In this document: in pieces, positions 26,078 to 28,248 of the stretch
Numbering within the stretch: position 1 is the stretch's first letter
Layout: every line of letters starts with the position of its first letter
Source of the DNA: Clostridia bacterium
GTDB lineage: Bacteria; Bacillota; Clostridia; Oscillospirales; CAG-272
Assembly: GCA_017463125.1 (NCBI GenBank)
Contig: JAFTPV010000001.1
Location: forward strand, 1-54,384
Direction: 5' to 3'
DNA length: 54,384 nt
Position numbers and translations under genes: made by a program
The notes under the pieces: model-generated
What the model was told of the DNA's origin: nothing
Seen by the model: only the letters and a program-made list of their open reading frames with translations
Database searches by the model: none

Positions 26078-26611
26078 TTATTTTTTATCCTGCTTTACAG
26101 GAGAGAGGATAATGGACATAAAGCGTCCCTCGAGAATAGGCTTTTTCTCAGCAACACCGGCGTCGCGGCATGCCTCCTCAAACTTCTCGATAACCTCACG
26201 TCCAAGCTCCATGTGCGACATTTCTCTGCCTTTGAAGCGCACAACAGCCTTAACCTTATTACCCTCTGCCAAAAACTTTTTAGCGTGATTGACTCTGGTA
26301 TCAAAATCATGCTGCTCAATACGACAGGAAAGCTGAACCTCTTTTACCTTAACGACAACCTGCTTTTTCTTAGCTTCCTTCTCTCTCTTGTCACGCTCGA
26401 AGCAGAACTTTCCGTAATCGATAGCGCGGCATACGGGAGGAGTAGCGTTTGCAACGATGAGAACGAGATCCACACCGTTATTATAAGCGTAATTACGAGC
26501 ATCGTCTATCTTCATAATGCCAACCTGCTCGTTATCGGGGCCGATAACTCTGACCTCTGTCGCCTTGATTTCCTCATTGATAGGTAAATCCTTCTGGTTA
26601 TTGGGTTTAAT
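26078..26611 (-). CDS. infC: Translation initiation factor IF-3, AUU start codon
   Basis: The 177-residue protein has the N-terminal domain with INEEIKATEVRVIGPDNEQ, a linker rich in Lys/Glu, and the C-terminal domain with FKGREMSHMELG. IF-3 keeps 30S subunits free and proofreads start codons. The start is ATT at 26611: GGAGG lies 9 nt upstream, and the protein then has the normal length. The frame is open further upstream (to 26707), but that part is the leader and includes the terminator hairpin. AUU lets IF-3 repress its own synthesis, as known in other bacteria. Confidence 0.95.
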   Translation of the reverse strand: MKPNNQKDLPINEEIKATEVRVIGPDNEQVGIMKIDDARNYAYNNGVDLVLIVANATPPVCRAIDYGKFCFERDKREKEAKKKQVVVKVKEVQLSCRIEQHDFDTRVNHAKKFLAEGNKVKAVVRFKGREMSHMELGREVIEKFEEACRDAGVAEKKPILEGRFMSIILSPVKQDKK

Positions 26612-26767
26612 GGCTTTGTACCTCCAAAAACAAAAAATGCATACGGAGAATTTCCGCACGCATACAACACTCCCAAAAGCGAGAGTAAAAGTATTAACCA
26701 TACGCACCCTTGTGGTATGGTGAGAACGGAAATTCTGCTTGAATTTTATGAAATATCTTTCAATTTC
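26612..26767 (-). promoter_or_regulatory. infC leader: attenuator, probable L20-type autoregulatory leader
   Basis: A terminator hairpin (minus strand, 26637-26647 with 26653-26663) is followed by a U-rich tract (26626-26637) that abuts the GGAGG of infC. Its loop-side strand CGGAAATTCT (26647-26656) is exactly complementary, 10 bp, to AGAATTTCCG at 26727-26736 near the transcript start, giving a mutually exclusive antiterminator. A further 7-bp hairpin (ACCATAC/GTATGGT, 26697-26721) lies between. The design and location match the L20 leader known from Bacillus. The RNA family assignment is by position and logic, not by alignment. Confidence 0.8.
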
Positions 26768-26802: not shown

Positions 26803-26907
26803 TAGTTTTTTTAACTTTTTTTGAAATTCTTTTTATTTCGGCGATTTTTTCTACATTTTCTACTTATTACACAAACTTTTTCAAAATAAATTGTGAAAAA
26901 TACCATC

Positions 26908-26936
26908 TTTACAAAATAGCAAAAAAGGTGTATAAT
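26908..26936 (+). promoter_or_regulatory. Sigma-A promoter of the orphan ncRNA
   Basis: TTTACA, 17-bp spacer, TATAAT. The start is expected at about 26941-26944, exactly where the first stem of the structured RNA begins. Confidence 0.85.
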
Positions 26937-26940
26937 GTAA

Positions 26941-27140
26941 GAGCGCAAATCGGTAGGAGCATTTCTACCGTATATTTTTGCGCTATGATATGCTTACCCG
27001 AAGGAGCATCAATCTTATGATGTGAAAACACGGAGGGCGGCTACATATTTTAATATGGCGTGCGGAGTACTGCGCGCTGAATTCGAGCGTTACGCTCAAA
27101 CGGGAGTTGTCAAATGCAGGGACAGCTCCTTTTTTGTTTT
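26941..27140 (+). ncRNA. Unrecognised structured ncRNA, about 200 nt
   Basis: A free-standing RNA gene bounded by a promoter (26908-26936) and an intrinsic terminator (27103-27140); the next gene has its own promoter, so this is not a leader. Helices that can be drawn: an 8-bp stem AGCGCAAA/TTTGCGCT (26942-26949/26977-26984) enclosing CGGTAG/CTACCG (26951-26956/26965-26970); ATGCT/AGCAT (26990-26994/27005-27009); GCGTGC/GCGCGC (27058-27063/27072-27077); GAGCG/CGCTC (27085-27089/27093-27097). GGAGC near the first loop could pair with the terminator's GCTCC. There is no coding frame of note. It lacks T-box, tmRNA and SRP signatures, and its ends do not pair as in 6S RNA. The clostridial raiA RNA is one family worth testing; I cannot confirm it. 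Confidence 0.8.
27103..27140 (+). terminator. Intrinsic terminator of the ncRNA
   Basis: A 9-bp stem GGAGTTGTC/GACAGCTCC (one G-U pair), 9-nt loop, then TTTTTTGTTTT. Confidence 0.92.
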
Positions 27141-27166: not shown

Positions 27167-27195
27167 TTGACAAAATATAGATGTTATGGTATAAT
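27167..27195 (+). promoter_or_regulatory. Consensus sigma-A promoter of the SPFH gene
   Basis: TTGACA, 17-bp spacer, TATAAT. It starts 27 bp after the ncRNA terminator, separating the two transcription units. The leader is about 30 nt. Confidence 0.9.
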
Positions 27196-27231: not shown

Positions 27232-28248
27232 ATGCAAGAAAAGATTTTAACCACTAAAAAGCTAGGTATGCCGGTCATGCTTCTCACAATACTGATGATT
27301 GCGGCGTCTATAGCAGTTATCGTTCTCGGCGGATTTATGAGCACCGAGGAAGCGCCCTCCCCGATACTTTTCATCGGTATTTTCCTAACGTGCATCTCTT
27401 GGATACCCCTTACAGGTCTTAAGGTACTTAAGCCCCAGGAGGCTCTCGTTATCACCCTTTTCGGAAAATACAGAGGCTCACTTAAGGGCGACGGCTTCTA
27501 CTGGGTAAATCCTTTTTCCTCTTCTTTCAATCCTGCCGCAAAAACCAAGCTTAGTCAAAGCGCCGACGTTTCAACTCCTATTAACATACTCCAAGGAGCT
27601 CAAGGGGCGCAGAGCGTGGATCTTACTACGGTATCAAACAAAATTTCTCTTAAGATAATGACCCTTAACAACGCAAAGCAAAAAATAAACGACTGCCTTG
27701 GCAACCCTGTTGAAATAGGCATTGCGGTTACTTGGAAAATAGTTGATACCGCAAAGGCGGTATTTAACGTAGACAACTACAAGGAGTTCTTATCTCTTCA
27801 GTGCGACAGCGCTTTACGTAACGTTGTAAGAATATATCCTTACGACGTGGCGCCCGGAGTTGATACTACCGGTGACGGTGTTGCCGACGAGGGCAGCCTC
27901 AGAGGCTCCAGTGAGGTAGTTGCCGAGAGAATAAGAAACGAGATTCAAGCAAGAGTTGACGAGGCAGGTATTGAAATAGTTGAAGCAAGGATAACCTACC
28001 TCGCCTATGCCCCCGAGATAGCAGCGGTAATGCTTCAACGCCAGCAGGCGTCGGCAATAATCGACGCAAGACGAATGATCGTTGACGGAGCGGTTGGAAT
28101 GGTTGAGATGGCACTCGAACGTCTTGCACAGAACGAAACCGTTGTTCTTGACGACGAGAGAAAGGCGGTAATGGTATCAAACCTTCTCGTAGTTCTTTGC
28201 GGTAACAAGGACGCACAGCCCGTAGTAAACTCCGGAACCCTTTATTAA
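27232..28248 (+). CDS. SPFH/Band 7 domain membrane protein
   Basis: The 338-residue protein has two hydrophobic N-terminal segments (about 12-35 and 44-62), then an SPFH domain (QEALVITLFGKYRGSLKGDG...) up to about residue 250, and an Ala/Glu-rich C-terminal helical part. SPFH proteins form membrane-bound oligomeric rings or cages that organise proteases, lipids or receptors. The frame is open 17 codons further upstream, but AAGGAG before the ATG at 27232 sets the start. It is followed 13 bp later by a small ribbon-helix-helix protein, probably in one operon. Exact role unknown. Confidence 0.9.
   Translation: MQEKILTTKKLGMPVMLLTILMIAASIAVIVLGGFMSTEEAPSPILFIGIFLTCISWIPLTGLKVLKPQEALVITLFGKYRGSLKGDGFYWVNPFSSSFNPAAKTKLSQSADVSTPINILQGAQGAQSVDLTTVSNKISLKIMTLNNAKQKINDCLGNPVEIGIAVTWKIVDTAKAVFNVDNYKEFLSLQCDSALRNVVRIYPYDVAPGVDTTGDGVADEGSLRGSSEVVAERIRNEIQARVDEAGIEIVEARITYLAYAPEIAAVMLQRQQASAIIDARRMIVDGAVGMVEMALERLAQNETVVLDDERKAVMVSNLLVVLCGNKDAQPVVNSGTLY

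What the first reader, a model, noticed from the sequence alone, without database searches (positions are those of the whole stretch)
26941..27140. Orphan structured ncRNA gene with its own promoter and terminator
About 200 nt between infC and an SPFH gene carry a near-consensus promoter (TTTACA-17-TATAAT), several GC-rich helices including a compensated double stem at its 5' end, and an intrinsic terminator. The next gene has its own perfect promoter 27 bp later, so this is a separate RNA gene, not a riboswitch. It lacks signs of T-box, tmRNA, SRP or 6S RNA. It could be a member of a large clostridial RNA class such as raiA, or new.
Basis: partly seen in the sequence, partly recalled or inferred. 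Interest (0 to 1): 0.78.

Follow-up and report, generated by a model that had tools for sequence, protein, structure and literature searches.

The report
New small RNA family beside infC
The stretch looks like a separate gene for a small folded RNA that belongs to an RNA family not in the Rfam catalogue, found in one large family of uncultured gut Clostridia; what the RNA does is still unknown.

Summary
Window 26908-27135 carries a promoter TTTACA-17-TATAAT, about 195 nt that fold well (z -2.98) and an intrinsic terminator; the next gene (SPFH) has its own perfect promoter. Rfam 15 gives only chance-level hits. DNA search of 59 genomes found no relative, but synteny, patterns and three covariance models led to 64 distinct loci, window included. 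They share a hairpin NNNUCA-ANCNNA-UGANNN with compensated stems. Outside the window's clade the RNA is a rod whose outer stem plus U-run is the terminator; in 43 aligned rods 19 of 21 pairs show double-sided changes. Matrices trained outside the window's genus rank 26881 (promoter) and 27001 (hairpin) first in the window. The last model hit 17 of 41 genomes of the family and, in the order, 10 of 247, all in that family. The RNA lies near infC and lon (SPFH or recG in the window's clade) and in some genomes is turned round, so it is not a leader. 6S lies elsewhere. A new orphan RNA family; protein binding at the hairpin is my best guess, untested. No transcript data.

The parts
26881..26936 (+). 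conserved promoter region: upstream element, -35 TTTACA 26908-26913, -10 TATAAT 26931-26936
   Evidence: held-out matrix gives 33.6 bits here, next best in the window 11.5
26942..27135 (+). inferred transcript, about 195 nt (start inferred from the -10 box)
   Evidence: fold z -2.98 (26941-27140); promoter and terminator positions
26942..26984 (+). 5' double stem-loop domain; lineage-specific, compensated in G075
26983..27053 (+). stretch matched by the family rod model R3; P1 and P2 are eroded here
   Evidence: 21.2 bits, E 0.022, best in window, next 16.8
27006..27023 (+). P3, the conserved apical hairpin: stem 27006-27011/27018-27023, loop AUCUUA 27012-27017
27057..27078 (+). extra hairpin, not seen in G075
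   Evidence: by eye
27085..27097 (+). hairpin GAGCG-UUA-CGCUC; G075 has GAGCU-UUUU-AGCUC here
27102..27135 (+). intrinsic terminator with loop AAAUGCAGG conserved in G075, then U-run
27167..27195 (+). promoter of the next gene
   Evidence: 12 of 12
27232..28248 (+). SPFH/Band_7 gene; neighbour, not part of the RNA gene
   Evidence: PF01145, E 6.5e-24; ORF end
26078..26611 (-). infC (IF-3), divergent neighbour; start codon inferred as ATT
   Evidence: PF00707 and PF05198; ORF list

Best explanation
Shown by comparison: the window holds a stand-alone gene for a small structured RNA of a family not in Rfam 15, seen so far in one family of uncultured Clostridia and once per genome in the model searches. 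It is preceded by a conserved sigma-A-type promoter sequence and ended by its own terminator. Its constant part is a rod topped by hairpin P3 (NNNUCA-ANCNNA-UGANNN) with an asymmetric internal loop below it (consensus GCGGA / CAAC). A 5' domain of 0-61 nt varies by lineage. In the window's clade the lower rod has eroded and a separate terminator hairpin is present. Inferred: the RNA is made constitutively and acts in trans as an RNA-protein particle, P3 with its flanking loop being the protein's recognition site (sponge or scaffold) and the variable domains tuning stability or partners. Neither the protein nor the target is known.
For: Structure: 43 rods, 91.5% of cells paired against 73.8% in shuffles and at most 59.2% when slid, 19 of 21 pairs changed on both sides; the five column pairs with the highest mutual information are all model pairs. 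P3: 26 stem versions in 64 loci, each with at least 5 of 6 pairs; 36 of 36 loci listed by the RNA-only models carry the P3 letters. Promoter: 35 of those 36 have one at 11 of 12 or better upstream, against 29 of 720 control windows, and 33 of 36 end in TTTT. Membership of the window: held-out matrices from 35 promoters and 38 hairpins give a joint 53.3 bits, next -4.8; no random window of 60 exceeded 0. Independence: the gene downstream is lon, SPFH, recG or infC. For protein rather than Hfq-antisense: Hfq found in 0 of 19 genomes of the genus and 5 of 11 others of the order; P3 stem letters change while the loop keeps A, C and A.
Against: No transcript, protein or target evidence. Alignment A6 was fitted to a model of the same structure, which favours it. 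The window's own copy fits the rod model weakly (E 0.022, several broken pairs), and genome searches with R2 and R3 did not list the own genome as a match. The loop letters were demanded by the expressions used and weighted by the models. Detection is patchy even in the family (17 of 41), so either the models miss many copies or the RNA is dispensable. The protein-binding step is inference only.
Confidence: 0.5

Rival explanations
1. It is a trans-acting antisense regulator: exposed loops (C-rich or CCAAU loops of the 5' hairpin in some genera, the conserved terminator loop in the window's clade) pair with mRNAs.
For: By eye, 5' loops recur within genera: CCCCAA in L188, L200, L202 (genus g150), GGCCAAU in L192, L194, L197 (g160) and L196 (g201), CCCCCC in L181, L186, L187 (g152); the terminator loop AAAUGCAGG is identical in the window and G075 and G014 keeps a related loop; four sister species share a nearly identical stretch GGUUAUUGGUACAUAUUG.
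Against: The 5' domain is all but absent in several members (0-1 nt in L068, L069, L144, L146, L177, L206), so it cannot be the common mechanism. Hfq not found in 19 genus genomes. I did no target search.
Confidence: 0.28
2. It is a cis-acting leader or attenuator of the downstream gene, originally lon.
For: lon lies downstream on the same strand, 99-955 nt away, in 35 of 64 loci; the rod's outer stem is itself a terminator.
Against: 29 of 30 tested loci (of those 35) have a promoter-like site of 9 of 12 or better between the RNA and lon; no control was made. In 6 loci SPFH is downstream, in one recG, and in 6 infC is downstream on the same strand, at 224-300 nt in five and 1865 nt in the sixth. 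The window's SPFH has a perfect promoter.
Confidence: 0.07
3. It is a divergent copy of a known RNA (raiA/ModT, 6S, SRP and others).
Against: Only chance-level Rfam hits on the window region (best snoZ39, 21.7 of 39 bits, E 0.17), none on the RNA in five genus loci or 20 family loci. The genome has a 6S RNA elsewhere, 66.5 bits. The smallest members are about 80 nt single rods. SRP RNA was not looked for in the genome.
Confidence: 0.04
4. It encodes a small peptide starting at the ATGATG inside P3.
For: AAGGAG lies 10 nt before ATGATG in the window and in G075.
Against: In the window the ORF is ATG ATG TGA; the SD-like letters are not kept in the four sister species and frames differ between them, by eye. 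The only ORF of 12 or more codons wholly inside the RNA has 15 codons, starts with TTG and has no SD.
Confidence: 0.02

Closest known systems
raiA motif RNA / ModT (RF03072)
   Same: structured RNA in Clostridia, model of 209 positions, reported as very abundant and, by a section title, acting in trans (abstract and section list of PMC11706538)
   Different: no raiA match on the region even at E <= 10
6S RNA (RF00013)
   Same: stand-alone rod-shaped RNA (recalled)
   Different: the genome has a separate 6S; no large central bubble in the predicted folds and small members of about 80 nt
L20 leader (RF00558)
   Same: lies in the same infC region of the relatives
   Different: it precedes infC itself (on the other strand in the common orientation) and scores below the cut-off there; unrelated to this RNA
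Candidate structured RNAs of human microbiomes (PMC8040213)
   Same: 3161 intergenic candidates were predicted there (passages); this RNA could be among them
   Different: the main text names neither infC nor lon; its candidate list is a supplement that I could not open

Membership tests
new family: infC/lon-linked rod RNA (defined here) | P3 hairpin NNNUCA-ANCNNA-UGANNN with compensated stem | tested here: met
   window 27006-27023; best hairpin-matrix site in the window, 19.7 bits against 4.4 for the next
new family: infC/lon-linked rod RNA (defined here) | conserved promoter sequence upstream of the RNA | tested here: met
   33.6 bits from a matrix trained outside the genus
new family: infC/lon-linked rod RNA (defined here) | full rod, with P1 as terminator and P2 | tested here: not met
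   R3 in the window: 21.2 bits, E 0.022, several broken P1/P2 pairs, separate terminator at 27102; homology rests on P3, promoter, synteny and genus intermediates
new family: infC/lon-linked rod RNA (defined here) | location near infC or lon | tested here: met
   infC divergent in the window; infC and/or lon in the fetched stretch in 54 of 64 loci (one of the ten misses, L144, was left out of the database, and one search shows infC about 1.2 kb from it)
raiA / ModT RF03072 | match to the covariance model | tested here: not met
   window region, E <= 10: no raiA hit; 0 of 24 relatives, but no control genome rang
6S RNA RF00013 | match to the covariance model | tested here: not met
   no hit in the region; the 6S gene is at G000:C20:9787-10010
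riboswitch or leader | constant downstream gene in the same orientation | tested here: not met
   lon, SPFH, recG or infC downstream; orientation turns
Hfq-dependent sRNA | Hfq in the host | tested here: not met
   0 of 19 genus genomes match PF17209, control rings in 5 of 14; several are incomplete MAGs

The most novel reading that the evidence does not exclude
A family-wide RNA-protein particle of unknown job in gut Clostridia that seem to lack Hfq: a constitutive rod RNA whose constant tip binds one conserved protein, while interchangeable 5' and 3' modules give each lineage its own targets.
Probability: 0.3. Interest if true: 0.75.

Novelty: new member of a known kind. Interest (0 to 1): 0.55.

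Why it matters
It adds an RNA family with strong covariation, models and over 60 loci to a group of uncultured animal-gut Clostridia. If the apical hairpin binds a protein, it gives a bait to find a new RNA-binding protein in bacteria that seem to lack Hfq.

Tried and rejected
Plain DNA searches found nothing beyond the own genome: 59 genomes, own included, and the phage collection. The second R1 hit in the own genome (G000:C5) proved to be a promoter only, before a gene that looks like nagB (name from memory); the other weak R1 hits that I read were promoters of tRNA or protein genes. Most of the 76 genomes listed were not read. Of 34 genomes with an SPFH match I read 30 loci; the RNA stood before SPFH in 6, the window included. 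Pattern hits with GCATGAAGCTTATGATG are inside a coding gene, by eye glycogen phosphorylase. Of 52 genome contigs pattern hits, 20 have 0-1 extra stem pairs and were dropped (some of these are labelled Clostridia too); of the 32 with two or more, two (Flavobacterium, Seramator) were dropped as chance, leaving 30. A CsrA-sponge reading was dropped: only 6 GGA in 195 nt. A peptide reading was dropped (and by eye). The class search found 0 of 392, but it also missed the own genome, so it says little about eroded copies. The random-window control records 0 also when no promoter site passed 5 bits. The pair counts are wrong (a bad expression, then an off-by-one) and are not used. One search stopped on an error and was rerun. 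In one search one locus (L144) was missing from the neighbour database and so counts as having no neighbour.

Literature: searches (listings and starts of abstracts only); passages of PMC8040213 and PMC8632094; abstract and section list of PMC11706538. No listed title or abstract start describes an RNA beside infC or lon in these bacteria. Supplements could not be opened, and no preprints are held.

Full report
WHAT IS THERE. Between divergent infC (IF-3 domains) and an SPFH/Band_7 gene there is a promoter sequence TTTACA-17-TATAAT (26908-26936), then about 195 nt of strongly folding sequence (z -2.98; 1 of 200 shuffles as good), ending in a terminator (27102-27135). The SPFH gene has its own perfect promoter at 27167-27195. 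Rfam finds three tRNAs in the window and nothing here at gathering thresholds; a permissive scan gives three chance-level hits, the best snoZ39 with 21.7 of 39 bits, E 0.17.

FINDING RELATIVES. Nucleotide search of 59 genomes found only the own genome. I therefore looked at the same place in other genomes of the genus. SPFH homologues were found in 34 of 69; of 30 such loci read, six, the window included, hold the same promoter and a hairpin with stem CAUCA/UGAUG before SPFH. A pattern for that hairpin added loci with other downstream genes: recG in G014, lon in G078, a contig end in G061. A model of promoter plus hairpin (R1, nine seeds) found 19 of 69 genomes of the genus at E < 1e-6, nine of them its own seeds; in the order search I recognised four more in other genera of the family (read). 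One scan of GenBank genomes gave 52 matches, 30 of which I kept as having an extended stem: 29 are labelled Clostridia, Clostridiales or Oscillospiraceae and one 'uncultured bacterium', and 21 of the 30 titles name ruminant-gut RGIG MAGs. Several are the same genomes as those met under unnamed handles. The GTDB family name is not known to me.

THE FAMILY'S SHAPE. Outside the window's clade the RNA is a single rod: outer stem P1 (GCAC.../...GUGC) followed directly by the U-run, so that P1 is the terminator; a variable P2; then, by consensus, GCGGA-[P3]-CAAC. Two RNA-only models were built (R2 from 10, R3 from 43 members). Over 43 aligned rods 91.5% of 883 cells are paired, against 73.8% in shuffles and at most 59.2% in slid versions, and 19 of 21 pairs show changes on both sides (the alignment was fitted to the R2 structure, which favours it). 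As a second view, the five column pairs with the highest mutual information among all pairs are model pairs. P3 has 26 stem versions in 64 distinct loci, window included, each with 5 or 6 of 6 pairs. The loop reads ANCNNA in all 64, but the expression used for the count demands this; no listed locus failed it, and 36 of 36 loci listed by the RNA-only models also have it.

IS THE WINDOW A MEMBER? Directly, the full rod fits poorly: R3 gives its best hit of the window at 26983-27053, 21.2 bits, E 0.022, with broken P1 and P2 pairs, and genome searches with R2 and R3 did not list the own genome as a match. But weight matrices trained on 35 promoters and 38 hairpins from loci outside the window's genus (genome-contig loci carry no genus label and were taken if infC was at most 63% identical or not seen) pick 26881 (33.6 bits; next 11.5) and 27001 (19.7; next 4.4); the joint score is 53.3, the next -4.8, and no Markov window of 60 exceeded 0 (0 also stands for windows without any promoter site over 5 bits). 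Together with synteny and intermediate genus members I take homology as secure. The window's clade has kept promoter and P3, eroded the lower rod and has a terminator hairpin of its own.

PROMOTER AND TERMINATOR. Of 36 loci listed by the RNA-only models, 35 have a promoter of at least 11 of 12 within 110 nt upstream (32 perfect), against 29 of 720 control windows; 33 end in TTTT. At least six of the 36 had first been met through the promoter, so the test is not wholly independent.

WHY NOT A LEADER. In 64 distinct loci lon is downstream on the same strand in 35 (99-955 nt away), SPFH in 6, recG in one; in 6 infC is downstream on the same strand (224-300 nt in five, 1865 nt in one), four of these with lon behind the RNA. 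In 29 of 30 tested loci, of the 35 with lon downstream, a promoter-like site of at least 9 of 12 lies between the RNA and lon (no control made). Such swaps and turns fit an independent gene.

DISTRIBUTION. R2: 52 of 146 family genomes at E <= 0.01. R3: 17 of 41 family genomes at E <= 0.1; 10 of 247 in the order at E <= 0.01, all ten in the window's family, of which about 24 were sampled, so none of about 223 others; 0 of 392 in the class, where the own genome was also missed. One match per genome wherever one was found.

WHAT IT IS NOT. The genome's 6S RNA is at G000:C20:9787-10010. raiA gave no match on the region; the raiA search of 24 relatives is uninformative because no control rang. Rfam on 5 genus and 20 family loci shows no hit on the RNA; the recurrent hits are sub-threshold L20 leaders in the infC region. 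SRP, RNase P and tmRNA genes were not looked for elsewhere in the genome.

HOW IT MAY WORK. Inference: the constant element is a hairpin whose stem letters change while its loop letters A, C, A and the flanking internal loop stay. That is what a protein-recognition site looks like, more than an antisense seed. Hfq was found in 0 of 19 genomes of the genus. I therefore favour an RNA-protein particle, with antisense pairing by the variable modules as the main rival. No target, protein or transcript is shown.

NOVELTY. No Rfam 15 family; five literature searches (listings only) show no description. It may be one of the candidates in the supplement of PMC8040213, which I could not open. I call it a new family within the known kind of small stand-alone bacterial RNAs.

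Noticed in passing
L004, L005, L006, L008 (sister species), between P3 and terminator: A stretch GGUUAUUGGUACAUAUUG is nearly identical in four species, and their terminator hairpin keeps CGUGGGGGCG unchanged.
   Followed up: partly
window about 26637-26760, - strand, and the same place in relatives: The infC leader with a terminator-like hairpin; relatives match L20_leader (RF00558) below its cut-off. infC seems to start with ATT.
   Followed up: partly
genus genomes G000-G018: No Hfq match in 19 of 19 genomes, whereas 5 of 11 genomes of other families in the order have it.
   Followed up: partly
L116, L146, L160, L192, L201 and others, upstream of lon: lon carries a recurring promoter-like site, -35 TGGAAA or TAGAAA with extended -10 TGNTATAAT.
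   Followed up: no
L181, L186, L187, 5' domain: A hairpin UUUGCC-CCCC-GGCAAA with a C loop precedes the rod in one genus; other genera show CCAAU or CCCCAA loops.
   Followed up: no
G000:C5:14458-14551 (L111): A promoter similar to the RNA's lies before a protein gene that looks like nagB; no RNA there.
   Followed up: yes
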